DNA from: Saccharothrix sp.
GTDB taxonomy: Bacteria > Actinomycetota > Actinomycetes > Mycobacteriales > Pseudonocardiaceae
Direction: 5' to 3'
DNA: 64,000 nt
Assembly: GCF_031180885.1 (NCBI RefSeq)
Contig: NZ_JAPSLK010000004.1
Coordinates: forward strand, 62,001-126,000
Under the pieces are notes generated by a model that searched no databases, was not told the DNA's origin, and saw only the letters and a list, made by a program, of their open reading frames with translations. This document shows, piece after piece, positions 8,957 to 24,534 of the stretch. The position numbers and the translations under genes are program-made. The first letter of the stretch is position 1. The number at the start of each line of letters is the position of its first letter.

Positions 8957-9070
8957 GTGTGGGTGGGGATGCCGGCTGGGTGGGTCAGTGGCCGGTGGCC
9001 TTGGGTGGGGCAGCACGGCGGCGGGAGTGTGGGTGGGGATGCCGGCTGGGTGGGTCAGTAGCCGATGGCC
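8957..9070. repeat. Direct repeat, two ~44-bp copies 70 bp apart
   Basis: Bases 8957-9000 and 9027-9070 are direct copies with two mismatches; the first 33 bases are identical and contain GTGTGGGTGGGG and CCGGCTGGGTGGG. The second copy runs into the 3' end of the LUD-domain gene and supplies its stop codon region, so that gene's end borders the repeat. Confidence 0.8.
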
Positions 9071-9809: not shown

Positions 9810-10253
9810 ATGGCCTCCTCCGCCCGCCGCCGCGTCCGCGCCGCACGGACCCCGGCCGGCCCGAAAGCCGAACAGGCGGGCATCGTCCGGCCGTTCAAGA
9901 CCGCCTGGGAGACCAAGGGCATCGACGCCCTGATCAGCCTGCTCGACCCCGACGCCACCGAGACCGCCGAGGGCGGCGGGCTGACCGTCACCCACCTGCG
10001 GCCGATCGTCGGCGGTGCGCGGATCGCCCGCGCCTACGCCGAGATCGCCCGGGTCTCCGGCCACCGCACGACGTTCCACGAGACCACCGGCAACGGCCTG
10101 CCCGGCCTGGGGGCCGAGCAGGACGGCGACCTCGCCACCGTGTTCGCGTTCGAGATCGCGGGCGACTGGATCAGCAACATCTGGGCGGCGCGGAACCCCG
10201 ACGAGCTCCGGCGCCGGCGGATCGGGGCTATTCCTGGGCCTTGCCCCCGGTGA
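9810..10253 (+). CDS. SnoaL-like protein resembling the C-terminal domain of SigJ/ECF41 sigma factors; probable remnant
   Basis: The 147 residues read like the tail of an ECF41 sigma factor: MASSARRRVRAAR resembles the end of sigma region 4, followed by a SnoaL-like fold (GIDALISLLDPDAT, PIVGGARIARAYAEIA) and the IWAARNPDEL ending. No sigma-2 or sigma-4 region precedes it. Its last 26 bases overlap the convergent permease gene, because the frame reads on past the NPDEL end (RRRRIGAIPGPCPR). It is probably a truncated sigma-factor gene, though a stand-alone SnoaL-like protein is possible. The start is weakly supported (CGAGG six bases upstream). Confidence 0.55.
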   Translation: MASSARRRVRAARTPAGPKAEQAGIVRPFKTAWETKGIDALISLLDPDATETAEGGGLTVTHLRPIVGGARIARAYAEIARVSGHRTTFHETTGNGLPGLGAEQDGDLATVFAFEIAGDWISNIWAARNPDELRRRRIGAIPGPCPR

Positions 10254-11271
10254 CGCGGGACAGGGCCAGCGCGATGAGGATGATCGTGCCGTTGAGCGCG
10301 CCGATCCACTGGGCCGGCACACCGCCGAGGGTGAGCACGTTCTGGATCAGGAACAGCAGCAGGATGCCGGTGAACGCGCCGAACATGGTGCCCTTGCCGC
10401 CGTTGAGGCTGATGCCGCCGATCACGGCCGCCGCGAACACGGTGAAGATGTACCCGTTGCCCTGCGCCGACGCGACCGACGCCAGCCGCCCGGACAGCAG
10501 CAGGCCGCCGAGCGCCGCGAGCAGGCTCGCCGAGACGATCACGATCCACAGGACCCGGTCGGTGCGGATGCCCGCCGCCTTCGCCGCGTCCACGTTGCCG
10601 CCGATCGCGTAGAGGGACCGGCCGAAGCTGGTGAACCCGAGCAGCACGATGCCGGCCGCGAACAGCGCCAGGCACAGCCACACCGACGCGGGCACGCCGA
10701 GCCACTGCGTGGTGCCCAGGTAGAGCATCGACTCCGGGAGCTGGAAGAACGTCTGGCCGCCGGAGATGCCGGTGAGGATGCCGCGCAGCACGATCAGCAT
10801 GCCGAGCGTGACGATGAAGCCGTTGAGGCCGAACCGGATGATGAACAGCGCGTTGACCACGCCGATCAGCACGCCGACCGCGAGGGTGATGGGCACCGAC
10901 CAGCCACCGGGCAGCAGGCCCAGTCCGTGGCCGGCGCCCACGGGCACGGTCAGCCACGCGGCGACCCCGGGCGCGAGCCCGACGGTGGACTCCAGCGACA
11001 GGTCCATCTTCTTGACGATCAGGACCAGCGTCTGGGCCAGTACGAGGACCGCGATCTCGGACATGGTCTGCAGGACGTTGACCAGGTTGTCCGGCTGGAG
11101 GAACACCGGGCTGACCAGCTGGCCGACGATCGCGATCACGACGATCGCGGGGATCAGCGCCAGGTCGCGCATCCGGGCGAACGCGATCCGCCGGCCACCG
11201 GCGACCCGGCCCCCCGGACCGCCCGCCGCGCCGTCCCCGGTGACCGGGGCTGCGGTCGTGGTCTCAGCCAT
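10228..11271 (-). CDS. Sugar ABC transporter permease (RbsC/AraH type)
   Basis: A 347-residue membrane protein with about ten hydrophobic helices. It has the family motifs around KMDLSLESTVGLAPGVAAWL and GGISLNGGKGTMFGA (RbsC-type permeases carry the DLSVG and GKGT motifs at these places). It is last in a minus-strand operon; its start overlaps the ATPase gene by eight bases. As the membrane channel of a CUT2 sugar importer it would pair with the ATPase and lipoprotein encoded just upstream. Substrate is inferred from context to be L-fucose or a related deoxysugar. Confidence 0.9.
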   Translation of the reverse strand: MAETTTAAPVTGDGAAGGPGGRVAGGRRIAFARMRDLALIPAIVVIAIVGQLVSPVFLQPDNLVNVLQTMSEIAVLVLAQTLVLIVKKMDLSLESTVGLAPGVAAWLTVPVGAGHGLGLLPGGWSVPITLAVGVLIGVVNALFIIRFGLNGFIVTLGMLIVLRGILTGISGGQTFFQLPESMLYLGTTQWLGVPASVWLCLALFAAGIVLLGFTSFGRSLYAIGGNVDAAKAAGIRTDRVLWIVIVSASLLAALGGLLLSGRLASVASAQGNGYIFTVFAAAVIGGISLNGGKGTMFGAFTGILLLFLIQNVLTLGGVPAQWIGALNGTIILIALALSRVTGGKAQE

Positions 11272-12769
11272 CGAGGTCCACTCCTTCCATCGCGGCCACG
11301 AGCTGGTGGTCGTGCCAGCCGCGGGGGATCTCGGCGACCACCCGGCCCTGGAACACCACCAGGACCCGGTCGCACATGCGCAGGTCGTCGAGTTCGTCGG
11401 AGGCGATGAGCACCCCGGTGCCGGACTCGGCGACCTCCTCGACCTTGCCGAGCAGGAACTCCTTGGACCGCACGTCCACGCCGGCGGTCGGGTTGATCAG
11501 CACCAGCAGCCTCGGGTCGTTGGCCAGCGCGCGGGCCATGACGACCTTCTGCTGGTTGCCGCCGGACAGGCCGGACACCGGCAGCTCCGGTCCGGGGGTC
11601 TTGATCGCGAGCTTGCCGATCATGGTCCGGGCGAACCGGTCCCGGCGGCGGCCGTCGATGAACCCGGCCGGGCCCAGCCGGTCCGGGATGGTCAGGGTGC
11701 CGTTGTCCGCGATGGACATCTCCGGCACGAACCCCTGGTGGTGGCGGTCCTGCGGGACGAAACCCACGCCCGCCGCCAGCGCCGCCGGCACACTGCCCGG
11801 CCGGGGCCGGTGGCCGGCGATTTCGACGACACCGCCAAAGGCGGCCCGCAAGCCGACGACAGTCTCCGCGATCTCGATGCGACCGCTGCTCGCGGCACCG
11901 GCCAGACCGACGATCTCGCCGGCGCGGATGCGGAACGACACGTCGTCGTAGGCGCCGGGAAGAGACGCGCTGTCCACCGTGAGCACGTCCGGGGCGTCCG
12001 CGGACGGGCCGTGGCGCTCGCCGGCGGTTTCCGAGGCGGCTTCGCCGGTCATGGCGGCGACGAGGTCGGCGCGCGGCAGGTCGTCGACCGGAGCGGTCAG
12101 GACGTGCCGGGCGTCGCGGAACACCGTGACGGTGTCGCAGATCTCGTAGACCTCTTGCAGGTGGTGGCTGATGAACAGGAACGTCACGCCCTGCCGTTGG
12201 AGGTCGCGGATCCGGTTGAACAGCCTGTTGATGGCGGACGCGTCCAACTGGGCGGTCGGCTCGTCCAGGATGATGAACCGCGCTCCGAACGACAGCGCCC
12301 GGGCGATTTCCACGAACTGCCGCTGCTCGACGTCCAGTTCCTTCGCGGGCGTGCGCACGTCCACGTCGACCGACCACGTGTCGAGCAGGTCCCGGGCCTT
12401 GGCCCGCACCGTCTTCCACCGGATCAGCCCGGTGCGGCCGTGGTCGTGCCGGTTGAGGAAGAGGTTCTCGGCCACGGTCAGCTCGGGGATGATCGTGGAC
12501 TTCTGGTAGACGCACGCCACCCGCTGCCGCCACGCGTCCCGGTCGGCCAGGCGCGGCGCGGGCTCGCCGGCGAAGGTCACCGCGCCCTCGTCCGCCGCTT
12601 GGAGCCCGGTGAGGATGGACACCAGGGTCGACTTGCCCGCCCCGTTGCGCCCCACCAGCGCGTGGGTCTGCCCGGGCTCGATCGTGATGCCGGCCTCGTG
12701 CAGGGCCACGGTGGACCCGAACCGCTTCGTTATCCCCGTCGCCTCGACCACGGGTGCGGCGGCAGCCAT
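11264..12769 (-). CDS. Sugar ABC transporter ATP-binding protein (CUT2, tandem ATPase)
   Basis: Start ATG 12769 gives 501 residues with two nucleotide-binding domains, as in RbsA/MglA. The first has Walker A GRNGAGKST (40-48), an LDVEQRQFVEIARAL segment and IILDEPTAQLD. The second has a degenerate Walker A (AGAASSGRIEIAE) and an intact signature (LSGGNQQKVVMARAL) with LINPTAGVD. This asymmetry is normal for the family. It drives the importer formed with the permease and substrate-binding protein of the same operon. Confidence 0.92.
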   Translation of the reverse strand: MAAAAPVVEATGITKRFGSTVALHEAGITIEPGQTHALVGRNGAGKSTLVSILTGLQAADEGAVTFAGEPAPRLADRDAWRQRVACVYQKSTIIPELTVAENLFLNRHDHGRTGLIRWKTVRAKARDLLDTWSVDVDVRTPAKELDVEQRQFVEIARALSFGARFIILDEPTAQLDASAINRLFNRIRDLQRQGVTFLFISHHLQEVYEICDTVTVFRDARHVLTAPVDDLPRADLVAAMTGEAASETAGERHGPSADAPDVLTVDSASLPGAYDDVSFRIRAGEIVGLAGAASSGRIEIAETVVGLRAAFGGVVEIAGHRPRPGSVPAALAAGVGFVPQDRHHQGFVPEMSIADNGTLTIPDRLGPAGFIDGRRRDRFARTMIGKLAIKTPGPELPVSGLSGGNQQKVVMARALANDPRLLVLINPTAGVDVRSKEFLLGKVEEVAESGTGVLIASDELDDLRMCDRVLVVFQGRVVAEIPRGWHDHQLVAAMEGVDLDG

Positions 12770-12792: not shown

Positions 12793-13845
12793 CTAGTTGC
12801 CCCACAGGGACTTGTCGTCGTTCTTCACGCTGGGGACCCCGTCGTATGTGCCGCCGTCGGCGGTGACCAGGGGTGCGGACAGTTGGTCCTCCAACACGCC
12901 GTCGCGGACCTGGATGATCGTGCTGTCGTGGTCGGTCTTGCCGGGGGAGAACGTCTTCCCGTCGATCGCGGCCTTCAGGTAGTACAGGGCGTACTTGGCG
13001 TAGAGGTCGGCCGGCTGGGAGACGGTGGCGTCGATCTTGCCCTCGGCGATGTTCTTGAGTTCCTCCGGGATGCCGTCGTTGGAGACCACGAACACGTGCC
13101 TCGGGTCGCTCGGCGGGACCAGCAGGTCCTTCTGCTTGAGCACCTGGAGCGTCCCGGCGAGCGCGAAGCTGGACTGCATGTAGACGCCCTTGATGTCGGG
13201 GTGGGCGGTCAGGTCGGTCTGGAGCTTCTGCGCCGCGACCGCGCCGTCCCAGTTCGTGGCCTCGCCGAACACCGTGATGCCCGGGTAGTTGGCCTTCATG
13301 CAGTCGTTGAACGCCTCGGTGCGGTCCCGGCCGTTGATCGAGGCGAGGTCGCCCTGCAGCATCACGACCTTGCCCTTGCCGCCCAGCTTCGCGCCCAGGA
13401 AGCGGCACGCCTTCTCGCCGTAGGCGCGGTTGTCCGCGCGGACCACCATGAACACCTTGCCGGTGTCGGGCCGGGTGTCCACGGTGACGACGGGGATCTT
13501 CTTCGCTTCCAGTTGCGCCAGGGTCGGCGCGATGGCGGCGGTGTCCTGCGGGGCCATCGCGACGCCCTTGACGCCCTGGCTGATGAACGTCTGGGCGTTG
13601 GCGGTGAGCTTCGCGACGTCGTTCTGCGAGTTGGTGGTCTTGAGGTCCAGACCGAGTTCCTTCGCGAACTCGGGGGTGTACTTGATGTAGGAGTTCCAGA
13701 AGTCGGTGTCGGAGCGCGGGTAGTCGACACCGACCACCGGGGCGCCACCGGTCTGCCCGGTGCCCGTCGCGCCGCACGCGGCGAGCGTGGCGGCGAGGGC
13801 GGTGACGAGGCCGAGACGTGCGTAGGTGCGGGCTGTGCTCTTCAC
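12793..13845 (-). CDS. Sugar ABC transporter substrate-binding lipoprotein
   Basis: A 350-residue periplasmic-binding-protein-like lipoprotein. The signal ends in a lipobox LAAC with C24 as the lipidated residue, so it is anchored outside the membrane. The mature part begins with PVVGVDYPRSDTDFW and has the type-I fold of RbsB-like proteins (FISQGVKGVAMAPQDTAAIAP, KIPVVTVDTRP, VVSNDGIPEELK). It lies between the SDR gene and the ATPase gene. Next to fuconate dehydratase, L-fucose is the most likely ligand, but other deoxy- or pentose sugars cannot be excluded. Confidence 0.9.
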   Translation of the reverse strand: MKSTARTYARLGLVTALAATLAACGATGTGQTGGAPVVGVDYPRSDTDFWNSYIKYTPEFAKELGLDLKTTNSQNDVAKLTANAQTFISQGVKGVAMAPQDTAAIAPTLAQLEAKKIPVVTVDTRPDTGKVFMVVRADNRAYGEKACRFLGAKLGGKGKVVMLQGDLASINGRDRTEAFNDCMKANYPGITVFGEATNWDGAVAAQKLQTDLTAHPDIKGVYMQSSFALAGTLQVLKQKDLLVPPSDPRHVFVVSNDGIPEELKNIAEGKIDATVSQPADLYAKYALYYLKAAIDGKTFSPGKTDHDSTIIQVRDGVLEDQLSAPLVTADGGTYDGVPSVKNDDKSLWGN

Positions 13846-13884: not shown

Positions 13885-14640
13885 TCAGGTGCGGGGGCGG
13901 GTGCGCAGGCCGCTCATGCCGCCGTCGACGGCGAGGTCGGTGCCGGTGGTCGAGCCGGACAGCGGGCTCGCCAGGTAGGCGATGGCGTGCGCGACCTCGT
14001 CGGCGGTCACCAGGCGGCCCATGGGCTGGCGGGCGTTGAGCGCGGCCCGTTCCGCCTCCGGGTCGGCGGCGCGGGCCAGCAGCCGGTCGATCCACGGCGT
14101 GTCGGCGGTGCCCGGGTTGACGCAGTTGACCCGGATGCCGCTGCGCACGAGGTCGGCGGCGGTGGCGCGGGTGAGCGCCAGCACCGCGCCCTTGGTGGCC
14201 GAGTACAGGACGCGGTCGGGCAGGCCCGCGGTGGCCGCGATGGAACAGGTGTTGACGATGGCCGCGCTGGACGACCGGCGCAGGTGCGGCAGCGCGGCGC
14301 GGGTGGTGCGGACGATGCCGAAGACGTTGACGTCGAAGACTTTCCGCCACTCGTCGTCGGGGTTGTCCTCGATGCCGCCCTGCGCGCCGATGCCGGCGTT
14401 GTTGACCAGGACGTCGATGCCGCCGAGCCGCTGGGCGGCCTGCTCGACGGCCGCTTTCACGGTGTCGTCGTCGGCCACGTCCGCCCGGATGCCGATCAGC
14501 GGCTCCGGAACCCCCTCGGGGGTGAGGTCGAGGCAGGCGACGCGGGCGCCGCGCGCGGCCAGCAGTCGCGCGGTGGCCAGTCCGATGCCGGAAGCGCCGC
14601 CGGTCACCACGGCGGACAGCCCGGCCAGTTCCCCGGTCAT
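13885..14640 (-). CDS. SDR-family sugar (acid) dehydrogenase of the L-fucose pathway
   Basis: A 251-residue classical short-chain dehydrogenase: cofactor motif TGGASGIG (13-20), NNAG (80-83), catalytic S133, Y146 and K150, and the NPGTADTPW segment. D38 after the second strand (ACLDL) predicts NAD rather than NADP. In non-phosphorylative L-fucose degradation two NAD steps are needed: L-fucose to the lactone, and 2-keto-3-deoxy-L-fuconate to the diketo acid. This is the only SDR here, so it could do either or both. Its ATG overlaps the stop of the fuconate dehydratase gene by four bases (ATGA), showing translational coupling. Confidence 0.85.
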
Positions 14641-15944
14641 GCGGTGGCCTGCCGGTTCCAGACAGGCCCGTCCGGGAAGCGGTGGGCGGCGATCGAGGCG
14701 GGGAGCAGTTCGGCGCCGATGCCCGGCGCGGTCGGCGCGAGGTAGCGGCCGGCGCGGATGCGGACCGGGTCGGTGAAGTGCTCGTGCAGGTGGTCGACGT
14801 ACTCGATCACGCGGTCCTCCGTGGTGCCGCTGACCGCCACGTAGTCGAACATCGCCAGGTGCTGGACCATCTCGCACAGCCCGACACCACCCGCGTGCGG
14901 GCACACCGGGACGCCGAACTTGGCCGCCAGCAACAGGATCGCGACGTTCTCGGTGACGCCGGCGGTGCGGCTGGCGTCGAGCTGGAGGACGTCCAGCGCG
15001 CCGGCCTGGAGCAGTTGCTTGAACATCACCTGGTTGTGGGTGTGCTCCCCGGTGGCGACCTTGACCGGTGCGACGGCCCGCCGGATCTCGGCGTGGCCCA
15101 GGACGTCGTCGGGCGAGGTGGGTTCCTCGATCCAGTACGGGTCGTAGGGTTTGAGCGCGGCCATCCACTCGATGGCCTGCCGCACGCCCCACGCCTGGTT
15201 GGCGTCCACGGCGATCCGGATGTCCGGCCCGACCGCCTCGCGGGCCAGTCGCAGGCGGCGCAGGTCGTCGGCGGGGTGGGCGCCGACCTTCAGCTTGATC
15301 TGGGTGAACCCGTCGGCGACGGCCTCTTTCGCCAGCCGCACCAGCTTTTCGTCGTCGTAGCCGAGCCAGCCGGGGGTGGTGGTGTAGGCGGGGTAGCCGT
15401 CTCTCAGGAGGCGTTCGGTGCGTTCGGCGCGGCCGGGTTCGGCGCGGCGCAGGATGTCCAGCGCCTCGTCGCGGGTGAGGGCGTCCTCCAGGTAGCGGAA
15501 GTCGACCAGGTCGACCAGTTGCTCGGGGGACAGGTCGGCGAGCAGCCGCCACACGGGTTTGCCCTCGCGGCGGCCGTACAGGTCCCACACGGCGTTGACG
15601 ATCGCGGCGGCGGCCATGTGGATGACGCCCTTCTCCGGGCCGAGCCAGCGCAGTTGGCTGTCGCCGGTCAGCCGGCGGGAGAACGCGCCGAGGTCGCCCA
15701 GGACCTCGTCCACGGGCAGGCCGACCACCAGCGGCGCCAACGCCCGCACGGCCGCGACTTCGACGTCGTTGCCCCGTCCCACGGTGAAGGCCAGGCCGTG
15801 GCCCTCGGCCCCGGCGCTGGTGCGGATCGTGACGTAGGCGGCGGAGTAGTCGGGTTCGGGGTTCATCGCGTCGGAGCCGTCGAGGTCGCGCGAGGTGGGG
15901 AACCGCACGTCGACCGCGTCGACGGCGGTGATCAGCTCAGTCAC
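14637..15944 (-). CDS. L-fuconate dehydratase (enolase superfamily)
   Basis: GTG 15944 is chosen since GGGGGCGG lies upstream and the family N-terminus follows ([19 protein letters not shown]). The 435 residues carry the complete fuconate dehydratase active site: K217 and K219 (IKLKV), metal ligands D247, E273 and E300, and the D323/H350 dyad. Each lies one residue before its counterpart as I recall it for the Xanthomonas enzyme (K218, K220, D248, E274, E301, D324, H351). The enzyme dehydrates L-fuconate to 2-keto-3-deoxy-L-fuconate. It is first in a five-gene minus operon with the SDR and the ABC importer, divergent from the regulator. Confidence 0.93.
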
Positions 15945-16195: not shown

Positions 16196-16900
16196 GTGTC
16201 ACTGACCGACAAGGCCATCGACCGCATCAGGGACCTGATCCAGTCGGGCGAGCTGCCGCCGGGGTCGAAACTGCCCCCCGAGCAGCAGTTGGCCGCCGAA
16301 CTGGGCCTGTCCCGCAACCTGATGCGGGAGGCGGTCAAGGCGCTGGTCGTGGCCCGGGTGCTGGAGATCCGGCGGGGCGACGGCACGTACGTGACGAGCC
16401 TGGAACCCGAGGTGGTGCTGGGCGGGATCGCGTCGGCCGTGGAGCTGCTGCGCGGCGAGACCCTGCTGGAGCTGACCGAGGTGCGCCGGCTGTTCGAACC
16501 GGTCGCCACCGGGCTCGCGGCGACCCGGATCAGCGCCGCCGAACTCGCCGTGGTCGAGGGGCACCTCGACGCCATGCGCGCGGCGAAGGACGACGTGGAA
16601 CTGCTCAACCAGCACGACGCCGCCTTCCACCGCGCGGTCGTCGCCGCCACCGGCAACGCCACCCTGACGACCCTGCTCGAAGGCATCTCCGGCCGCACGG
16701 TCCGGGCCCGGGTGTGGCGCGGACTGGTCGACGACAACGCCGCCAGCCGCACCCTCGCCGAACACGAGGCGATCTTCAACGCCCTGCTCGACCGGGACGC
16801 CGCACTGGCCCAGGCCGCCGCCCTCATGCACGTGACCACCACCGAGCGCTGGCTGCGCGAGCACGTCGAGCGGGACGACGACATCCCGCCCACCGGCTGA
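16196..16900 (+). CDS. GntR-family (FadR/FCD) transcriptional regulator of the fucose operons
   Basis: GTG 16196 follows GGGGAG at the right distance and gives 234 residues. Residues 4-66 form a GntR winged helix (SKLPPEQQLAAELGLSRNLMREAVKAL; RRGDGTYV). The rest is an FCD ligand domain with the usual metal-binding set D141, H145, H190 and H212. FCD regulators typically sense sugar acids or hydroxyacids, so 2-keto-3-deoxy-L-fuconate, L-fuconate or lactate are plausible effectors. It is divergent from the dehydratase/transporter operon and heads the catabolic plus-strand operon. Confidence 0.9.
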   Translation: MSLTDKAIDRIRDLIQSGELPPGSKLPPEQQLAAELGLSRNLMREAVKALVVARVLEIRRGDGTYVTSLEPEVVLGGIASAVELLRGETLLELTEVRRLFEPVATGLAATRISAAELAVVEGHLDAMRAAKDDVELLNQHDAAFHRAVVAATGNATLTTLLEGISGRTVRARVWRGLVDDNAASRTLAEHEAIFNALLDRDAALAQAAALMHVTTTERWLREHVERDDDIPPTG

Positions 16901-16925
16901 CCCCTCCGTTCTCCGGGAGAGACCG

Positions 16926-17777
16926 ATGAGACTTCTGCGCGTAGGTGCGGCAGGGCACGAGCGCCCCGCCGTCCTCGACACCGACGGCACCGCCTACGAC
17001 CTGACCCCGTTGACCGCCGACATCGACGGCGCGTTCCTGGCCGGCGGCGGTGTGGACCGGGTCCGCGCGGCCCTGGCGTCCGGCGGGTTGTCGCCGGTGG
17101 ACATCGCCGGGCAACGCGTCGGCGCCCCGGTCGCCCGCCCGGGGAAGGTCGTGTGCATCGGGCTCAACTACGCCGACCACGCCGCCGAGACCGTCACGCC
17201 CCCGCCCGCGGAACCGGTCGTGTTCATGAAGGCCGCCAACACGGTGATCGGCCCCGATGACACCGTGCTCGTCCCGCGCGGCAGCGTGAAGACCGACTAC
17301 GAGATCGAACTCGCCGTGGTCATCGGCGCGACCGCGCGCTACCTGGACTCGCCCGACGACGCGGACAGTGTCATCGCGGGCTACGCCATCGCCGACGACG
17401 TCACCGAACGGGCGTTCCAGCACGAGCGGGGCGGCCAGTGGGACAAGGGCAAGTCGTGCGAGACGTTCAACCCGCTCGGCCCCTGGCTGGTGACCCCGGA
17501 CGAGGTCGGCGACCCGCAGGGGCTGGCGATGCGGTTGCGGGTCAACGGCGAACCGCGCCAGGACGGCCACACCAAGAACATGATCTTCGGTGTCCGGCAC
17601 GTCGTCTGGTACCTCAGCCAGTTCATGGTCCTGGAACCGGGTGACGTGATCAACACCGGTACTCCGGCGGGCGTCGCGTTCGGCGCCAACGACTTCCCGT
17701 ACCTGCGGGCCGGTGACGTGGTCGAGGCCGAGATCGACGGGTTGGGCCGGCAGCGGCACGTCCTGGGGCAGGCGTGA
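16926..17777 (+). CDS. FAH-family hydrolase, probable 2,4-diketo-3-deoxy-L-fuconate hydrolase
   Basis: A 283-residue fumarylacetoacetate-hydrolase-fold protein. Motifs are KVVCIGLNYADHAAE, the metal-binding DYEIELAVVIG, GKSCETFNPLGPWLV and NTGTPAGV. Homologues in L-fucose and L-rhamnose pathways split the 2,4-diketo-3-deoxy acid into pyruvate and L-lactate; the location with fuconate dehydratase and lactonase supports that role. ATG 16926 follows GGGAGA. Its stop overlaps the lactonase GTG by four bases. Confidence 0.85.
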   Translation: MRLLRVGAAGHERPAVLDTDGTAYDLTPLTADIDGAFLAGGGVDRVRAALASGGLSPVDIAGQRVGAPVARPGKVVCIGLNYADHAAETVTPPPAEPVVFMKAANTVIGPDDTVLVPRGSVKTDYEIELAVVIGATARYLDSPDDADSVIAGYAIADDVTERAFQHERGGQWDKGKSCETFNPLGPWLVTPDEVGDPQGLAMRLRVNGEPRQDGHTKNMIFGVRHVVWYLSQFMVLEPGDVINTGTPAGVAFGANDFPYLRAGDVVEAEIDGLGRQRHVLGQA

Positions 17778-18631
17778 ACGCCGTGATCCGGGTCGACGCG
17801 CACCACCACCTCTGGGACCTCGCCGCCCGGCCGCAGGACTGGCTCGACGAACCCGCCCTCGCCCCCATCCGGCGCGACTACGGCCAGGACGACCTGCGCG
17901 CGGTGACCACGGCGGCCGGGGTGGACGCCACCGTGCTGGTCCAGGTGCTCCCCGACATCGACGAGACCGCCGAGTTCCTCGCGCTGGCCGGGAAGTCCGA
18001 CCTGATCGCCGGGGTCGTGGGGTGGGTGGACCTGACCGCGCCCGACGTCGCCGAACAACTGGACCGGCTGCGGTCCGGGCCGGGCGGCGACCGGCTGGTG
18101 GGCGTGCGGCACCTGGTGCAGTCCGAGCCCGACCCGGAGTGGCTGACCCGCCCGGACGTCCTGGCCGGGCTGCGGGCGGTGCGCGACGCCGGGCTGGTCT
18201 ACGACCTGCTGACCCGGCCGCACCAGCTACCCGCGGCGGTGCGGGCCGTGCGGGCGTTACCGGACCTGGTGTTCGTGCTCGACCACCTGTCCAAACCGGA
18301 CATCGCGGGCGGGTCGTGGGAGCCGTGGGCGAGCGGGATCGCCGAGCTGGCCGCCGAACCGAACGTGGTCGCCAAGCTGTCCGGGCTGGTCACCGAGGCT
18401 GGTCCACTGTGGACGGTGGAGGAGTTGTGGCCGTTCGTCGACGTGGCGCTGGAGGCGTTCGGGCCGGAGCGGCTGGCGGTCGGCTCGGACTGGCCGGTGT
18501 GCCTGCTCGCCGCGTCCTACGCCGAGGTCGTGGGCGCCGCCGAGGAGTTGACCGCGAGCCTGGGCGACGCCGAGCGCGCCGCGGTCTTCGGCGGCACGGC
18601 CACCCGCGTCTACCGGTTGGGGCAGCGGTGA
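17774..18631 (+). CDS. Amidohydrolase-family L-fuconolactonase
   Basis: A 285-residue TIM-barrel hydrolase of the COG3618 lactonase group: VDAHHHLWD at residues 7-15 (metal HxH), VGVRHLVQ, FVLDHLSKP and AVGSDWPVC. It would open L-fucono-1,5(1,4)-lactone to L-fuconate, the step between fucose dehydrogenase and fuconate dehydratase. It starts at a GTG inside the FAH gene's stop and ends overlapping the larA ATG by one base (TGATG), so the block is tightly coupled. Confidence 0.87.
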   Translation: MNAVIRVDAHHHLWDLAARPQDWLDEPALAPIRRDYGQDDLRAVTTAAGVDATVLVQVLPDIDETAEFLALAGKSDLIAGVVGWVDLTAPDVAEQLDRLRSGPGGDRLVGVRHLVQSEPDPEWLTRPDVLAGLRAVRDAGLVYDLLTRPHQLPAAVRAVRALPDLVFVLDHLSKPDIAGGSWEPWASGIAELAAEPNVVAKLSGLVTEAGPLWTVEELWPFVDVALEAFGPERLAVGSDWPVCLLAASYAEVVGAAEELTASLGDAERAAVFGGTATRVYRLGQR

Positions 18632-19908
18632 TGGAGACCGTCCGGCTGGCCTACGGCGAGACCGGGCTGGACTTGCGCGTGGACCCGGCGGTGACCACGG
18701 TGGTGACGCCGAGGCACCACCAGGCCACCGAGCCACCACGGGACGTCCTGCGCAGGGCGCTGCGGTCCCCGGTGGCGGGTCCTCCGCTGCGCGAGCGGGT
18801 GCGACGCGGCCAGACCGTGGCGATCTCCGCCTGCGACGGGACCCGACCGCAGCCGCGCGAGCTGATGATCCCCGCGATCCTCGAAGAACTCGACGGCCTG
18901 GTCGACCTCGACGACGTCGTGGTGCTGGTCGCCACCGGCACCCACCGGGGCAACTCCGACGCCGAGCTGCGCCGGATGTTCGGTGACGACGTGGTCGATT
19001 CGGTGCGGATCGTCAACCACGACGCCCGCGACCCCGGAAGCCTGACCTGGGTGGGGGAGTTGGGCGCGGGCGTGCCGGTGTGGCTCAACAGCGAGTGGCT
19101 GAACGCGGACGTGCGCATCACGACCGGGTTCGTCGAGCCGCACTTCTTCGCCGGGTTCTCCGGTGGCCCCAAGCTGGTCGCGCCCGGCCTGGCCGCGCTG
19201 GAGACGGTGCTGGTGCTGCACGACGCGCGCCGGATCGGCCACCCGCGGGCGGCGTGGGGGATCATCGAGGGCAACCCGGTGCACGACGACGTCCGGGCGA
19301 TCGCGGCGGCGACCGGCGTGACCTTCGGGTTCGACGTGGTCCTCAACCAGGACAAGCAGGTCGTGGCCGCGTTCGGCGGGGACCTGCTCGCCATGCACGC
19401 CGAGGCCGTGCGCACCGCCCGTGAGATCGCGATGCGGCCGGTGCCGCACCGGTTCGACGTGGTGGTGACCACCAACTCGGGCTATCCGCTGGACCAGAAC
19501 CTCTACCAGGCGGTGAAGGGGATGTCGGCGGCCTACCAGGTGGTCGCGCCCGGCGGCACGATCGTGTGCGCGGCCGAGTGCCGGGACGGCTTCCCCGACC
19601 ACGGCTCCTACCGCGAGGTGCTGGCCTCGGCCGACTCGCCGGCGGCGCTGCTCGCCGAGATCTCCGCGCGGACGGCCACCGTGCCCGACCAGTGGCAGGT
19701 GCAGATCCAGGCCCGCATCCAGGCCGAGTGCCGGGTCGTCATGCACACCTCGTACCTCAGCGAGGCCGAGCTTGCGTCCGCGCACCTGAGCCAGACCGAC
19801 GACGTCTCGGCGACCGTCGCTCAGGCCTTGGCGGCGGCGGGACCGGGCGCGCGGCTGTGCGTGCTGCCCGAAGGACCGCAGACGATCCCGTACGTCCAGG
19901 GAGGCTGA
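18631..19908 (+). CDS. larA: LarA-family nickel-pincer 2-hydroxyacid racemase/epimerase
   Basis: The 425-residue protein has the full LarA active site: H105 (ATGTHRG), H171 (EPHFFAGFSGGPK), K181 and H197. These sit three residues before H108, H174, K184 and H200 as I recall them for the Lactobacillus plantarum lactate racemase, with identical spacing. K181 would hold the nickel-pincer nucleotide; H105 and H171 are the general acid/base pair. LarA enzymes racemise lactate; homologues are known that act on malate, longer 2-hydroxyacids and sugar acids. Here it is translationally coupled to a fuconolactonase and followed by larB, larC and larE. Substrate is therefore either L-lactate released by the pathway or a sugar acid. 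It is cytoplasmic. Confidence 0.9.
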   Translation: METVRLAYGETGLDLRVDPAVTTVVTPRHHQATEPPRDVLRRALRSPVAGPPLRERVRRGQTVAISACDGTRPQPRELMIPAILEELDGLVDLDDVVVLVATGTHRGNSDAELRRMFGDDVVDSVRIVNHDARDPGSLTWVGELGAGVPVWLNSEWLNADVRITTGFVEPHFFAGFSGGPKLVAPGLAALETVLVLHDARRIGHPRAAWGIIEGNPVHDDVRAIAAATGVTFGFDVVLNQDKQVVAAFGGDLLAMHAEAVRTAREIAMRPVPHRFDVVVTTNSGYPLDQNLYQAVKGMSAAYQVVAPGGTIVCAAECRDGFPDHGSYREVLASADSPAALLAEISARTATVPDQWQVQIQARIQAECRVVMHTSYLSEAELASAHLSQTDDVSATVAQALAAAGPGARLCVLPEGPQTIPYVQGG

Positions 19909-19910
19909 GC

Positions 19911-20594
19911 ATGGCGGGACCGGACGTGGTCGACCTCGGGTTCGCCCGGGTCGACGTGGATCGCGAGGCGCGCCAAGGCCTGCCGGAAGTGGTGTACGGC
20001 AGCGGGAAGACGCCCGACCAAGTCGTCGGGATCGTGCGGACGTTGTTGCGGCACAACGACGGGCCGGTGCTGGTCACACGGGTGGAGCCGGACGCGGCGG
20101 AAACCGTGCTGGCCGACGTGCCGGACGGTGCCTACGACGACGGGGCGCGGCTGCTGGTGTGGCGGCCGGCCGCGCCGACCGGGTTCGACGTGGTCGTGGC
20201 GGCGGCGGGCACGGCCGACCTGCCCGTGGCGCGGGAGGCCGCCGCCGTCGCCGCCGCGGTGGGGCTGGGCGTCACGACGGTCACCGACGTGGGTGTGGCG
20301 GGTCTGCACCGGTTGCTGGCCGAACGGGAGCGACTGTCCACTGCGGACAGTGTCATCGTGGTGGCGGGCATGGAGGGCGCGCTGGCGAGCGCGATCGGTG
20401 GCCTGGTCGCGTGCCCGGTGGTCGCCGTGCCCACCTCGACCGGGTACGGGGCCGGCCTGGAGGGGATCACCGCGTTGCTGGCGATGCACGCCTCCTGCGC
20501 GGCGGGGATCACGGTGGTCAACATCGACTCCGGGTTCGGGGCGGCGATGGCCGCGTTCCGGCTCGCGCGCGTGGTGGGGCGGAGGACGGGGTGA
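19911..20594 (+). CDS. larB: Nickel-pincer cofactor biosynthesis protein LarB
   Basis: A 227-residue LarB/PurE-like protein: ARQGLPEVVYGSGKTPDQ at the N-terminal domain, then the AIR-carboxylase-like domain with AAAGTADLPVAREAA, GMEGALASAIGGLV and PTSTGYGAG. LarB carboxylates and hydrolyses nicotinic acid adenine dinucleotide to pyridinium-3,5-biscarboxylate mononucleotide, the first cofactor step. GGGAGG lies upstream of ATG 19911. The stop overlaps the larC GTG by four bases. Confidence 0.93.
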   Translation: MAGPDVVDLGFARVDVDREARQGLPEVVYGSGKTPDQVVGIVRTLLRHNDGPVLVTRVEPDAAETVLADVPDGAYDDGARLLVWRPAAPTGFDVVVAAAGTADLPVAREAAAVAAAVGLGVTTVTDVGVAGLHRLLAERERLSTADSVIVVAGMEGALASAIGGLVACPVVAVPTSTGYGAGLEGITALLAMHASCAAGITVVNIDSGFGAAMAAFRLARVVGRRTG

Positions 20595-21739
20595 GCCGGG
20601 TCTGCCTGATCTCGCCGTTCACCGGGCTGGCCGGGGACATGCTGCTGGCCGCGCTGGTCGACGCGGGCGCGCCGCTCGACGCGATCCGGGCGGCCGTCGC
20701 CGACACCGGCCTGACCGGGTGGGACCTCGCCGTCACCCCGGTGCTCACCCACGGGCTCACCGGGCGGCGGGCGGTCGTGACGGTGACCGACGACGCCACG
20801 AGCCGCGCGGCGGGGGAGTTGATCGCCATGGCCGGTCGGGTGCGCGACCGGGCCGTGGCGGACACCGCGGTCGCCGCGCTGCGCGCCATCGCCGAGGTCG
20901 AGGCACGCCTGCACGGCGAGGACCCCGAGCGGGTCCACCTGCACGAACTCGGCGGCCACGACACCCTCGTCGACATCGTCGGCGTGGCCGCCGCGCTGCA
21001 CGCCTTGGACGTGCGGACCGTGCACTGCGAGGCGTTGCCGATCGGCGCCGGGTCGGTCCGCACGGCGCACGGGGTGCTGCCCTGCCCGGCCCCGGCGACC
21101 TCGGCGCTGCTGACCGGCGCCCGGGTCGTGGGCACCTCCCTGCCCGGCGAGACCGTGACCCCGACCGCCGCCGCCCTGCTGCACGCGATCGGTGCCGACT
21201 ACGACCCCGCGCCGCCGATGCGGATGCGGGCCACCGGCTACGGCGTGGGCACCCGGACGCTGCCCGACCGACCGAACGTGGCGGTGGTCCGGCTCGGCGA
21301 CCGGGAGGCCGCGGACATCCGCGACCTGGTCGTGCTGGAGACCACCGTGGACGACGTCACCGGCGAGGTCCTCGGATACGTCGTCGCGCTCCTGCTCGAC
21401 TCGGGCGCGCTGGACAGCTGGATCACCCCGGCCACGATGAAGAAGGGCCGCCCGGGGCACGTGCTCCACGCGCTCGTCACGCCCGAAACCGCGGACGAGG
21501 TCGAACGGCGGATGTTCACCGAGACCGGCACGCTCGGGGTGCGGCGGACGAGCGTGCGGCGCGCCGCCCTGCCCAGGACCACCGACACCGTCGACGTCCA
21601 CGGGATGCCCGTGCGCCGCAAACACGGTCCGCACCACGGAAAACCCGAGTACGACGACGCCGTGGCCGTCGCCCGCCAGACCGGTCTGCCCCTGCGCACC
21701 GTTCTCGCCATGGCCACTCACAGCCCGGGGGAGCGGTGA
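20591..21739 (+). CDS. larC: Nickel insertase LarC, single continuous reading frame
   Basis: A 382-residue protein from GTG 20591 containing both halves of LarC in one frame: the N-terminal part (FTGLAGDMLLAAL, HLHELGGHDTLVDIVG, GETVTPTAAALL) and the C-terminal part (LETTVDDVTGEVLGY, KKGRPGHVLHAL, TLGVRR). In Lactobacillus plantarum the two halves are joined by programmed frameshifting; none is needed here. LarC uses CTP to insert nickel into the dithiocarboxylated nucleotide. The stop overlaps the larE ATG by one base. Confidence 0.93.
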   Translation: MSRVCLISPFTGLAGDMLLAALVDAGAPLDAIRAAVADTGLTGWDLAVTPVLTHGLTGRRAVVTVTDDATSRAAGELIAMAGRVRDRAVADTAVAALRAIAEVEARLHGEDPERVHLHELGGHDTLVDIVGVAAALHALDVRTVHCEALPIGAGSVRTAHGVLPCPAPATSALLTGARVVGTSLPGETVTPTAAALLHAIGADYDPAPPMRMRATGYGVGTRTLPDRPNVAVVRLGDREAADIRDLVVLETTVDDVTGEVLGYVVALLLDSGALDSWITPATMKKGRPGHVLHALVTPETADEVERRMFTETGTLGVRRTSVRRAALPRTTDTVDVHGMPVRRKHGPHHGKPEYDDAVAVARQTGLPLRTVLAMATHSPGER

Positions 21740-22560
21740 TGGACACCAGCGCGGCCGCCGAACGGCTCGTGGCACACCTGACCGCGATCGGCCCGGTCGC
21801 CGTGGCGTTCTCCGGCGGTGCGGACTCCGCCCTCGTCCTCGCCGCCGCCGCGCGCGCCAACGGCCCCGACGCGGTGCTCGCGGTCACCGCCGACTCGGCG
21901 AGCCTCGCCACCGCCGAGCTGGAGGGCGCGGTCGCGTTCGCCGAAAGCCTCGGCGTGCGGCACGTGGCACCCCGGACCGCCGAGCTGGACAACCCCGCGT
22001 ACGCGGCCAACGGCCGGAACCGTTGCTACTTCTGCAAGTCCACCGTGCTGGACACCATCACCGCCGTCGCACGGGATCACGGCCTCGACGCGGTGGCCAC
22101 CGGCGTGAACGCCGACGACGCGGTAGACCCGTTCCGGCCGGGCATCCGCGCCGGCGACGAGATCGGCGTGCGCACACCGCTGCGCGACCTCGGAATGACC
22201 AAGGCCGCCGTCCGCGCGGTGAGCCGACACTGGCGACTGTCCACATGGGACAAACCTGCCATGCCGTGCCTGGCGAGCCGGGTGCGGTACGGGGTGGCGA
22301 TCACCCCCGCGCGCCTGGCCAGGGTCGAACGCGCCGAAGTGGCCGTCCGGGCCTGGCTCGCGAGCGCCGGCACCCCGACCCGCGACCTGCGCGTGCGCGA
22401 CCTCGGCGACACCGGGCGGGTCGAACTCGACCCCGACCTGGTCGACCGGCCGGAGATCAGACCCGCCCTTACCGAACTCGTGCGCGCGGCCGGGTTCGAC
22501 GCGGTCGAACTGGCGGTGTTCCGGTCGGGCGCCCTGAACCACGAGCCGCACCGCGGCTGA
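21739..22560 (+). CDS. larE: ATP-dependent sulfur transferase LarE
   Basis: A 273-residue PP-loop enzyme: FSGGADSAL (24-32), NRCYFCK (94-100) and the sulfur-donor region PCLASRVRYG with C177, matching C176 of the sacrificial-sulfur LarE of Lactobacillus plantarum as I recall it. Some LarE proteins instead use an iron-sulfur cluster held by three clustered cysteines. Here the only others in the list are C96 and C99 of the usual NRCYFCK motif, so the single-cysteine type is more likely. It supplies two sulfurs to the pincer nucleotide and completes the larBCE set for LarA. Confidence 0.92.
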   Translation: MDTSAAAERLVAHLTAIGPVAVAFSGGADSALVLAAAARANGPDAVLAVTADSASLATAELEGAVAFAESLGVRHVAPRTAELDNPAYAANGRNRCYFCKSTVLDTITAVARDHGLDAVATGVNADDAVDPFRPGIRAGDEIGVRTPLRDLGMTKAAVRAVSRHWRLSTWDKPAMPCLASRVRYGVAITPARLARVERAEVAVRAWLASAGTPTRDLRVRDLGDTGRVELDPDLVDRPEIRPALTELVRAAGFDAVELAVFRSGALNHEPHRG

Positions 22561-22576
22561 CGGCAAGAAATACACA

Positions 22577-22600
22577 CGACACCGCATCGCGGCGGTGTCG
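22577..22600 (+). terminator. Hairpin after the lar operon
   Basis: Perfect 9-bp stem (22577-22585 and 22592-22600) with a 6-base loop, just after the larE stop and 14 bases before the fucosidase ATG. It may end the lar transcript or act as an attenuator for the fucosidase genes. Confidence 0.5.
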
Positions 22601-22614
22601 AGACGGGAGTGTCG

Positions 22615-24534
22615 ATGACGACATCCGGATTGTCCCGACGAGGTTTCCTGGCCGCCACCGGCATCGCGGCGGCATCGGCCGCGGTACCGGGCCTGACCGG
22701 GTACGCGGCGGCGGACCCCCAGACCGATCTGGCGAACCTGGTCAACCTGAGGTTCGGCATGTTCAACCACTTCAACCTCGGCACCTTCACCAACGAGGAG
22801 TGGGCGGCGGGCGGCCAGAGCCCGTTGAAGTTCGCGCCGCCCTCCGTGGACTGCGCGCAGTGGGCGGCGGCGGCCGCTGCGGCGAAGATGAGCTACGGCG
22901 TGCTCACCACCAAGCACCACGACGGCTTCTCCTTGTGGCCCACGGCGTTCAGCACGCAGAACGTGGCCTACTCGGGCTACAAGCAGGACGTCGTGCGCCA
23001 GTACGTCGACGCGTTCCGCGCCCAGGGCCTGCGGGTCGGGCTGTACTACTCGGTCTGGGACCGCACGCACACCATCCAGGCCTACGGCGGCTATCACGTC
23101 AAGGACCCGTACCAGGCCATCGAGCCGGGCGACATGACCGTGGTGCTCGGCCAGATCCGCGAGCTGCTGACCAACTACGGCACGATCGACGTGTTCATCA
23201 CCGACGGCTACGCCTGGCAGATGGGCCAGCAGCAGATCTCCTACCAGGAGGTCCGCAACCTGGTGAAGTCGCTGCAACCGCACTGCGTGATGGTCGACCA
23301 CGGCGCCCTGGTGCAGCCCTGGCTCGGCGACGCGATCTACTTCGAGGCCCCGCTGGGCATCCGGGCGCCGGCGGGGAACACGTTCGCGGGCATGCAGGGC
23401 GAGACGATCAGCCGCGGCTGGTTCTGGCACCCGCACACGGCCACCGAAGCGCCCCGCAGCCGTGACGCCATCCTGGCCGACCTGCGCGACCTGGAACCCA
23501 AGTACACCTCGTACCTGCTGAACTGCCCGCCCAACCGCGAGGGCAGGCTCGACACCAACATCGTCAACCGGCTCGCGGAGGTCGGCGCGGCCTGGAGCCC
23601 GAACCCGTCGCGCCCGCCGCTGCCCGCCCAGCCGCTGCGCGTGGAGTGGCCGGTGAACGCGGTGGCGGCCTACGCGTCGTCCTACAACCCCGGCGAGGTC
23701 GCCTACCACGCGATCGACAACCGCAGCGACCGGAACTTCGAGACGTGCTGGTCGACCTGGGGCGGCGGTCGCACCCTCCCGCAGACGATCACGATCGACC
23801 TCGGTGGGGTGTGGAGCAACGTCTCCACGCTGGAATACCTGCCCAAGCAGTGGAACCGGACCAACTCCACCGACGGCGACATCACCGCGGCCACCATCGC
23901 CACCAGCACCGACGGCGTCACCTTCACCACGGTGGCCACCGTGAACTGGGCCGCGGACGCGCGACTCAAGCTCGCCGAGTGGACCAACCGGGACGTCGGT
24001 TTCGTGCGCATCACCGTCACGGCGGCCAGCGGCGGCTACGCCAACATCAACGGCGTGCACATCGGCGGCCGCAGCGTCCGTCCCCAACTGGTGTCGCGCT
24101 TCCCCCTGGCGAACACGGTCTACCGCATCGAGGCCCGCCACAGCGGCAAGGTGCTCGACGTGCGCGGCTCCGGCACCGCCAACAACACCCCGGTGCAGCA
24201 GTGGCCGTGGCGGAACAGCGCGAACCAGAAGTGGACCTTCATCTCCACCGGGGACGGCTACTTCAAGATCCGCGACCAGAACAGCGGCAAGCTGCTGGAG
24301 GTCGGCGGCCGATCCCGGGACAACGGCGGCACGATGAACATCTGGGGCGACGCGAACGTCCACCAGCAGCACTGGGCCGTCACGCCCGTCGGCGACGGCT
24401 ACTTCCTGCTCACCAACCGGCTCAGCCAGCGGGTCTTGGAGGTCCCGGGCGGGTCCACCGCCGACGGCACGGTCCTCGACCAGTGGGACCACAACGGCGG
24501 CGGCCACCAGCAGTTCCGCCTGATCCGGGCCTGA
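22615..24534 (+). CDS. Secreted GH29 alpha-L-fucosidase with discoidin-like domain and CBM13
   Basis: ATG 22615 (GGGAG five bases upstream) begins a Tat signal (SRRGFLAATG, then AAA). Residues 40-330 are a GH29 barrel: LRFGMFNHFN, TTKHHDGFSLW (100-109), GLYYSVWDR, and candidate nucleophile D197 in VFITDGYAW. Residues ~345-480 form an F5/8-type (discoidin/CBM32-like) sandwich beginning AVAAYASSYNPGE. The last ~145 residues are a ricin-type trefoil (HSGKVLDVRGSG, QKWTFI, QQHWAV). It would release L-fucose from extracellular glycans, directly feeding the fucose importer and pathway encoded upstream. 639 residues. Confidence 0.88.
   Translation: MTTSGLSRRGFLAATGIAAASAAVPGLTGYAAADPQTDLANLVNLRFGMFNHFNLGTFTNEEWAAGGQSPLKFAPPSVDCAQWAAAAAAAKMSYGVLTTKHHDGFSLWPTAFSTQNVAYSGYKQDVVRQYVDAFRAQGLRVGLYYSVWDRTHTIQAYGGYHVKDPYQAIEPGDMTVVLGQIRELLTNYGTIDVFITDGYAWQMGQQQISYQEVRNLVKSLQPHCVMVDHGALVQPWLGDAIYFEAPLGIRAPAGNTFAGMQGETISRGWFWHPHTATEAPRSRDAILADLRDLEPKYTSYLLNCPPNREGRLDTNIVNRLAEVGAAWSPNPSRPPLPAQPLRVEWPVNAVAAYASSYNPGEVAYHAIDNRSDRNFETCWSTWGGGRTLPQTITIDLGGVWSNVSTLEYLPKQWNRTNSTDGDITAATIATSTDGVTFTTVATVNWAADARLKLAEWTNRDVGFVRITVTAASGGYANINGVHIGGRSVRPQLVSRFPLANTVYRIEARHSGKVLDVRGSGTANNTPVQQWPWRNSANQKWTFISTGDGYFKIRDQNSGKLLEVGGRSRDNGGTMNIWGDANVHQQHWAVTPVGDGYFLLTNRLSQRVLEVPGGSTADGTVLDQWDHNGGGHQQFRLIRA

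What the first reader, a model, noticed from the sequence alone, without database searches (positions are those of the whole stretch)
16196..22560. Nickel-pincer racemase operon (larABCE) built into an L-fucose catabolic operon
Seen: regulator, FAH hydrolase, fuconolactonase, larA, larB, larC and larE follow each other with 1-4 base overlaps or small gaps, divergent from fuconate dehydratase, SDR and a sugar importer. LarA has H105, H171, K181 and H197 at the same spacing as the Lactobacillus enzyme. Known: the non-phosphorylative fucose/rhamnose pathway ends in pyruvate plus L-lactate; LarA relatives racemise lactate and other 2-hydroxyacids, including sugar acids. Inference: this LarA either converts pathway L-lactate to D-lactate for a D-specific oxidase, or epimerises C2 of fuconate or a related acid so the pathway accepts more sugars. 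Such a link between deoxysugar catabolism and the nickel-pincer cofactor is, to my knowledge, little described.
Basis: partly seen in the sequence, partly recalled or inferred. Interest (0 to 1): 0.88.

Follow-up and report, generated by a model that had tools for sequence, protein, structure and literature searches.

The report
Nickel racemase in L-fucose-type sugar operon
A soil actinomycete keeps its nickel-pincer racemase and the genes that make its cofactor inside an operon for breaking down L-fucose-like plant sugars, probably to flip the left-handed three-carbon acid left over at the end of the pathway so that the cell can use it.

Summary
Window 16196-22560 encodes a GntR/FCD regulator, FAH hydrolase, lactonase, LarA, LarB, LarC and LarE, almost gapless, divergent from an L-fuconate-dehydratase-like gene, SDR and ABC importer, and followed by two GH29 fucosidase genes. 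LarA and LarC have one copy each in the assembly. The linkage recurs: 49 of 56 related loci with larB, larC or larE near larA also carry fucose-pathway genes.

The LarA pocket (F, F, W, Q; 80 of 80 relatives) matches small-acid racemases, not sugar-acid epimerases. Two results shift the lactate reading towards glycerate: in 9 of 80 relatives a glycerate kinase gene lies between larA and larB, and this genome has a second fucose-type gene set without larA or larC. I propose a racemase for the terminal three-carbon acid: L-glycerate from L-galactose, made D for glycerate kinase, with L-lactate as alternative or second substrate. Nothing was tested biochemically. Against it: this operon has no kinase gene, family scores do not separate the two gene sets, and in Labedaea the loci may form one pathway.

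The parts
10228..11271 (-). sugar ABC permease (ribose-type importer)
   Evidence: ORF and gene caller; homologues at 73-91% identity in many relatives' loci; not scanned against Pfam itself
11264..12754 (-). sugar ABC ATPase, two ABC domains
   Evidence: PF00005, 2 stretches
12793..13845 (-). periplasmic sugar-binding protein
   Evidence: NCBIfam RbsB-like 101 bits, below its cut-off of 337
13885..14640 (-). SDR, candidate 2-keto-3-deoxy-L-fuconate 4-dehydrogenase
   Evidence: PF13561 204 bits; substrate inferred from pathway neighbours, no NCBIfam model over cut-off (best 25 of 231 shown)
14637..15944 (-). enolase-superfamily L-fuconate dehydratase (fucD type 1)
   Evidence: 672 bits over residues 5-431 to L-fuconate dehydratase 1yey
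16196..16900 (+). GntR/FCD regulator
   Evidence: PF00392 and PF07729
16926..17777 (+). FAH-family hydrolase, candidate 2,4-diketo-3-deoxy-acid hydrolase
   Evidence: PF01557 238 bits; 255 bits to L-2,4-diketo-3-deoxyrhamnonate hydrolase 8gsr; NF053535 317 bits, below cut-off 500
17774..18631 (+). amidohydrolase, candidate L-fucono-1,5-lactonase
   Evidence: PF04909 173 bits; NF052480 222 bits, below cut-off 400
18631..19908 (+). LarA, nickel-pincer-dependent short-chain 2-hydroxyacid racemase
   Evidence: NF033504 547 bits over cut-off 460; 266 bits to the broad-spectrum racemase 9eid and 249 bits to 5huq and 6c1w; only Lar_N match in the genome
19911..20594 (+). LarB, cofactor synthesis
   Evidence: NF033503 259 bits over cut-off 175
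20591..21739 (+). LarC, one ORF holding LarC1 and LarC2
   Evidence: PF01969 370 bits; both NCBIfam halves over cut-off; only PF01969 match in the genome
21739..22560 (+). LarE, sulfur transferase; cysteines 97, 100 and 178, numbered from the GTG at 21736
   Evidence: TIGR00268 277 bits over cut-off 150; cysteines listed
22577..22600 (.). perfect 9-bp inverted repeat, 6-nt loop, between larE and the first GH29 gene
22615..24534 (+). GH29 alpha-L-fucosidase with F5/8 and ricin-type lectin domains
   Evidence: PF01120 114 bits
24600..26552 (+). second GH29 alpha-L-fucosidase with ricin-type lectin domain
   Evidence: PF01120 301 bits; start by gene caller

Best explanation
The operon is an oxidative, non-phosphorylative pathway for an L-galacto-configured sugar freed by the fucosidases (L-fucose and/or L-galactose): lactone, aldonate, 2-keto-3-deoxy acid (FucD), 2,4-diketo acid (SDR), then pyruvate plus an L-2-hydroxy C3 acid (FAH hydrolase). 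L-fucose gives L-lactate; L-galactose, which differs only by a 6-hydroxyl, gives L-glycerate. LarA, charged with nickel-pincer cofactor made on the spot by LarB, LarC and LarE, inverts C2 of that C3 acid by proton-coupled hydride transfer. The reading I find likeliest is L-glycerate to D-glycerate, which glycerate kinase then phosphorylates into lower glycolysis; L-lactate is a plausible second substrate. Shown: gene content, order, conservation, catalytic residues, pocket signature, the kinase gene inside sister operons, the second gene set without larA or larC. Inferred: every substrate, transcription as one unit, the direction of inversion.
For: LarA is over the equivalog cut-off, with the small-acid racemase pocket F, F, W, Q in 80 of 80 relatives; the published racemase with Q at that place, LarAH43, is slightly better on glycerate (114e3 against 83e3 per M per s for lactate; PMC11770544). 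A glycerate kinase gene lies between larA and larB, same strand, in 9 of 80 loci (8 named genomes; S. luteola twice): six beside another enolase-family dehydratase (c14), one beside fucD, two with neither in view; two of the nine were scanned, the rest cluster with them. Also in sampled genomes G088 and G127; in G127 (the genome of L004) that cluster is followed by a gene 89% identical to the window's first GH29 gene. larA in 9 of 12 family genomes with fucD of at least 80% identity against 3 of 96 with only the 61-74% type (Fisher p 1e-8, not corrected for kinship). A second fucose-type gene set in this genome, with FAH, fucD, SDR, importer, AKR and lactonase but no larA or larC, on contigs C93 and C94. 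Published enzymes accept the L-galactose series: a 2-keto-3-deoxyfuconate dehydrogenase takes the galactonate analogue 5.3-fold less efficiently (PMC11199699), and an aldo/keto reductase oxidises D-arabinose, L-fucose and L-galactose (PMC6336799).
Against: No kinase gene in this window and none in 71 of 80 related loci; none near larA in 31 more distant actinomycete genomes, 10 of which have no PF02595 match at all. Glycerate kinase is common (190 of 200 family genomes), and in G015 one lies about 3 kb from a lar-free fucose operon. Q is not diagnostic: Isosphaera LarA also has Q and prefers lactate and 2-hydroxybutyrate, glycerate next (PMC11851776), and LarAs without fucose genes nearby carry it too. 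The window's FucD is, if anything, closer to the solved L-fuconate dehydratase than the second copy (672 against 643 bits), and lactonase and FAH scores do not separate the gene sets. The two loci are not always independent: the Labedaea operon beside lutABC shows no FAH or lactonase gene in the stretch seen, and these lie in its lar cluster instead; the second operons of G088 and G172 show no lactonase. [quoted passage not shown] Adjacent fucosidases point to L-fucose, hence L-lactate.
Confidence: 0.52

Rival explanations
1. LarA racemises pathway L-lactate to D-lactate, for a D-lactate oxidase, for cell-wall or export use, or simply to balance the two forms; glycerate plays no part.
For: L-fucose to pyruvate plus L-lactate is the documented outcome (PMC11199699); two fucosidase genes follow larE; NCBIfam names the enzyme lactate racemase; the lactate-group enzymes tested handle lactate, most of them well (PMC11770544). 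In Labedaea the lar cluster holds FAH and lactonase while the fucose operon that lacks them lies beside lutABC, so both may serve one route that ends in lactate.
Against: Only 1 of 80 larA loci has a gene like the nine lactate-oxidase queries I used, on the other strand about 6 kb away (L067). L-lactate-type oxidase families are as common with larA as without in 24 genomes. 93 of 96 family genomes with only the other FucD type lack larA. A glycerate kinase gene, not a lactate gene, follows larA in some relatives.
Confidence: 0.32
2. LarA is a C2 epimerase of an aldonate (fuconate, galactonate or a 2-epimer) that widens the range of sugars entering the pathway.
For: In many loci larA directly follows the lactonase gene, whose product would be an aldonate, and larA plus lactonase form a separate pair in G172. 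The LarA superfamily includes gluconate 2-epimerases (PMC7583248).
Against: Pocket F, F, W, Q instead of E, V, A, H (PMC11770544). LarA scores as lactate racemase over cut-off. Several larA loci show no lactonase near larA (L023, L027, L030, L034, L035, L043, L046, L047, L050), and in Microbispora the lactonase lies at the other end of the cluster.
Confidence: 0.07
3. The lar genes only share the operon as a convenient place; the racemase serves unrelated lactate metabolism.
For: larA genes without fucose genes nearby exist in Modestobacter, Geodermatophilus, Actinoallomurus and Pseudonocardia.
Against: The linkage persists in rearranged gene orders and in several families, and five lar loci without fucD, FAH or SDR nearby still have a regulator 73-82% identical to the window's (L019, L023, L028, L043, L053).
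Confidence: 0.08

Closest known systems
Lactate racemase LarA of Lactiplantibacillus plantarum with LarB, LarC and LarE
   Same: Same catalytic and cofactor-binding residues, same maturation genes, pocket F, F, W
   Different: Q instead of T at position 359; set inside a sugar operon with fuconate-pathway genes
LarAH43 of Enterocloster asparagiformis (PMC11770544)
   Same: Racemase of the lactate group with Q at the 359 position; glycerate best, lactate close behind
   Different: The paper leaves its physiological role open; its gene context was not seen
Non-phosphorylative L-fucose pathway, route 3 (PMC6336799, PMC11199699)
   Same: Fuconate dehydratase, SDR, FAH hydrolase, lactonase
   Different: No racemase is described in the passages read; no AKR-type sugar dehydrogenase gene in the window's operon
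D-gluconate 2-epimerase GntE (LarA superfamily)
   Same: Nickel-pincer enzyme associated with sugar-acid metabolism
   Different: Pocket E, V, A, H; acts on gluconate and mannonate (PMC11770544, PMC7583248)

Membership tests
LarA lactate racemase group (LAR) | score over the curated equivalog cut-off | tested here: met
   NF033504 547 bits, cut-off 460
LarA lactate racemase group (LAR) | two catalytic histidines, cofactor lysine, nickel histidine | tested here: met
   H105, H171, K181, H197 from the ATG
LarA lactate racemase group (LAR) | F, F, W, E/Q at positions 175, 176, 358, 359 | tested here: met
   F, F, W, Q (rule from PMC11770544)
LarA lactate racemase group (LAR) | racemises lactate or another small 2-hydroxy acid with bound NPN | not testable with these tools
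   needs purified NPN-loaded enzyme
GntE sugar-acid 2-epimerase | E, V, A, H at the same four positions | tested here: not met
   F, F, W, Q
NPN biosynthesis set | LarB, LarC and LarE over curated cut-offs | tested here: met
Non-phosphorylative L-fucose pathway, route 3 | fuconate dehydratase, SDR, diketo-acid hydrolase and lactonase families together | tested here: met
   lactonase and hydrolase are below the curated equivalog cut-offs, so substrate names stay open
Non-phosphorylative L-fucose pathway, route 3 | L-fucose dehydrogenase in the operon | tested here: not met
   no AKR gene among the operon's called genes, though 38 of 80 relatives' loci have one; the one homologue in the genome at 1e-30 (55% over 310 residues) lies at the start of contig C94 beside a lactonase gene
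Non-phosphorylative L-fucose pathway, route 3 | growth on L-fucose through these enzymes | not testable with these tools
   needs the strain

The most novel reading that the evidence does not exclude
The operon encodes a dedicated nickel-pincer glycerate racemase: L-galactose from plant polysaccharides is cut to pyruvate and L-glycerate, LarA turns L-glycerate into D-glycerate, and glycerate kinase passes it to glycolysis, running beside a separate L-fucose gene set without larA in the same cell.
Probability: 0.38. Interest if true: 0.75.

Novelty: new variant of a known kind. Interest (0 to 1): 0.6.

Why it matters
The natural role of many LarA enzymes is unknown; PMC11770544 says so of its glycerate-preferring member. 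A conserved operon that ties a complete nickel-pincer system to one sugar pathway, with a glycerate kinase gene inside some copies, gives a concrete and easily tested role, would put nickel supply into plant-sugar catabolism by soil actinomycetes, and would explain how the mirror-image C3 acid from an L-hexose is salvaged.

Tried and rejected
Aldonate 2-epimerase: rejected on pocket residues. 'Only a D-specific lactate oxidase is present': not supported (24 genomes chosen by me out of the 200 sampled). Shared FadR-like operator upstream of the regulators: a simple pattern found nothing in the window and hits in only 2 of 33 relatives' upstream regions, so co-regulation was not shown. Telling the two fucose-type gene sets apart by family scores of FucD, lactonase and FAH: no separation. 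Kinase linkage with more distant LarAs: 0 of 31. Phylum-wide linkage: 32 of 396 genomes have a LarA match at 1e-60, but only this one and two others are at 62% identity or more, so the sample says little; the contexts of those two were not read. The label 'gh29b' came from a query in a wrong reading frame and is not used; the first gene caller was poor and was replaced. The tree holds 70 rows, the window plus 69 of 80 loci; the other 11 loci were left out because their called LarA was shorter than 380 residues, and 3 of the 9 kinase loci are among them.
Full report
What is there. The + strand from 16196 to 22560 reads regulator, FAH hydrolase, lactonase, larA, larB, larC, larE, with junctions from a 25-nt gap to 4-nt overlaps. 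Divergent on the - strand lie fucD, SDR and a three-gene sugar importer (15944-10228). Two GH29 fucosidase genes follow larE after 54 nt, a space that holds a perfect 9-bp inverted repeat. Around them are glycosidase genes of families 43, 62 and 31, two genes with AbfB arabinofuranosidase-type modules and a GH141-like gene, which suggests hemicellulose as the food. The genome is 9.46 Mb in 125 contigs; the nearest LarAs in the tree are from Saccharothrix.

The lar genes. LarA, LarB, LarC and LarE all pass curated cut-offs. LarA and LarC are the only copies found in the genome; LarB and LarE were not searched genome-wide. The catalytic residues align with solved lactate racemases. The four specificity positions are F, F, W, Q in the window and in 80 of 80 relatives. 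PMC11770544 (outline, passages and sections 5-7 seen) gives F, F, W, E/Q for lactate-group racemases and E, V, A, H for gluconate epimerases, and reports a Q-bearing member that works best on glycerate. Because Isosphaera LarA also has Q and prefers lactate and 2-hydroxybutyrate, with L-glycerate next (PMC11851776, passages), Q alone does not decide.

Conservation. I took the 80 best LarA loci of named genomes (548 confirmed relatives, 80 kept), called genes and labelled neighbours by identity to the window's genes. Of 80 loci, 52 have at least one of fucD, FAH, lactonase or SDR near larA; of the 56 with larB, larC or larE near, 49 do; of the 24 without, 3 do. The list is ranked by similarity to the query and so favours kin; several loci are cut by contig ends. 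In a tree of 70 LarAs fucose-linked rows occur in Pseudonocardiaceae, Streptosporangiaceae, Streptomycetaceae and Catenulisporaceae, and the label clusters more than in any of 500 shuffles (7 changes against a mean of 18.2), which kinship alone can produce. Gene order differs: Microbispora loci carry larA-larB-larC-lactonase with larE on the other side, and a second architecture in Lentzea, Umezawaea and others uses another enolase-family dehydratase (cluster c14) and another importer. In an even sample of 200 genomes of the own family, larA occurs in 18, one of them only 25% identical, and fucD of at least 80% identity in 12. Nine of these 12 have larA; of the 96 genomes with only the 61-74% type, three do (Fisher p 1e-8, not corrected for kinship). 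Of the three with fucD of at least 80% and no larA, two (G163, G147) show no FAH or SDR gene beside fucD either; the third contig (G093) is too short to tell.

Glycerate kinase. In 9 of 80 loci (L002, L006, L007, L009, L010, L011, L012, L013, L024; L012 and L024 are one species) a gene of about 380 codons lies between larA and larB on the same strand. The two I scanned are glycerate kinases (PF02595, 420 and 404 bits; TIGR00045 over cut-off); the other seven are assigned by clustering with them. Six of the nine have the c14 dehydratase, one has fucD, two show neither. In G127 the order is larA (cut by the contig end), kinase, larB, larC, larE, then a gene 89% identical to the window's first GH29 gene. 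The window holds no such gene; its genome has five PF02595 matches (one place is listed). By comparison, nine lactate-oxidase queries (LutA, LutB, LutC; four FMN_dh; two FAD-oxidase) hit 1 of 80 larA loci, not adjacent. Against this, kinase genes are common in the family (190 of 200), none lies near larA in 31 more distant genomes, and in G015 one lies about 3 kb from a lar-free fucose operon with other genes between.

A second gene set in the same genome. Contig C93 ends in FAH, fucD, SDR, binding protein, ATPase and permease genes at 52-73% identity to the window's, and contig C94 begins with an aldo/keto reductase and a lactonase gene. In G170 and G109 the same genes follow each other in one stretch, so I infer, without joining them, that C93 and C94 are neighbours. 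Neither larA nor larC is there. Such a set is complete in the stretches of G170, G109, G141 and G015, but in G088 and G172 no lactonase is seen, and in Labedaea (G030) neither FAH nor lactonase. In Labedaea genes for LutA, LutB and LutC lie beside its regulator, and the FAH and lactonase genes lie in the lar cluster elsewhere in the genome. So where the set is complete, as here, the common fucose route seems to deal with L-lactate without a racemase; in Labedaea the two loci may form one pathway, which speaks against a strict split. Family scores of FucD, lactonase and FAH do not separate the two sets, so which serves which sugar is open.

Lactate oxidases. In 24 genomes of my choice (12 with larA out of 18, 12 without) the families LUD (22), FMN_dh (24) and FAD-oxidase_C (24) occur alike, 11 and 11, 12 and 12, 12 and 12. 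They are broader than lactate oxidation, so this only fails to support the idea that the larA genomes have a D-specific oxidase alone.

Mechanism. From the documented pathway (PMC11199699, passages and section 5; PMC6336799, passages) the hydrolase releases pyruvate and, from L-fucose, L-lactate. The L-galactose analogue gives, by the same chemistry (my deduction), L-glycerate. Some published enzymes tolerate the switch: a 2-keto-3-deoxyfuconate dehydrogenase oxidises the L-galactonate-derived acid 5.3-fold less efficiently, and an aldo/keto reductase takes D-arabinose, L-fucose and L-galactose; but another L-fucose dehydrogenase was strictly specific, and Halomonas fucose loci carry a different L-galactonate route (PMC5507952, passages). 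That Xanthomonas FucD also accepts L-galactonate, and that type I glycerate kinases need the D form, I recall and did not look up. A racemase that yields D-glycerate for a kinase is then useful, and the gene order larA-kinase-larB in sister operons fits. I put about 0.85 on a C3 acid as the physiological substrate, with glycerate a little ahead of lactate.

Print. Searches of the held library for 'glycerate racemase' (0 papers), 'lactate racemase' with 'fuconate' (0), L-galactonate with L-fuconate and L-glycerate (0) and nickel-pincer with fucose (2 records of one work; in the published version fucose is a crystallisation additive and a word in a reference title; the preprint was not opened) found no description of this link. 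A search for lactate racemase, fucose and LarA gave 5 papers, of which three were judged by title and abstract start only. Passages searched in PMC7583248, PMC11770544 and PMC11796402 hold no word beginning with 'fuc'. The library lacks most subscription papers. [quoted passage not shown]

Noticed in passing
window 8999-9688 (-): LUD-domain ORF (PF02589, 65 bits) whose C-terminal part appears, by eye on the sequence, to continue in another frame at a run of four G (+ strand) near 9145-9148; pseudogene or sequencing error. It lies beyond the importer with a + strand ORF between.
   Followed up: partly
L132 (own genome C93) and L183 (C94): Second fucose-type gene set without larA or larC, split over two contigs.
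   Followed up: yes
L178 8905-11659 (-): Labedaea: genes for LutC, LutB and LutA directly beside the regulator of a fucose operon that itself shows no FAH or lactonase gene.
   Followed up: yes
window 22577-22600: Perfect 9-bp inverted repeat between larE and GH29; the pattern scan calls it terminator-like on the - strand only.
   Followed up: partly
L004 11278-11460; L083, L100, L101, L147: Saccharothrix ALI-22-I (L004, the genome G127) has after larA only a stretch matching the first 61 residues of LarB and no larC or larE nearby; two further larA pieces of G127 lie at contig ends.
   Followed up: partly
L040, L042, L044, L055: Kribbella larA without larBCE nearby, beside a GH127-type gene (cluster label) and in some loci GH29, GH95-like and enolase-family genes; Pfam was run on L040 and L044 proteins only.
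   Followed up: partly
L071 11367-16367: Geodermatophilus larA followed by genes that look by eye like a four-carbon acid sugar kinase, a PdxA-like dehydrogenase, a second LarA-like protein and an altronate-dehydratase-like protein (names recalled, not searched).
   Followed up: no
L067 and L070, between larA and larB: RbsD/FucU-type mutarotase gene (cluster c33, Pfam run on the L014 member) at the place where other genomes hold glycerate kinase.
   Followed up: partly
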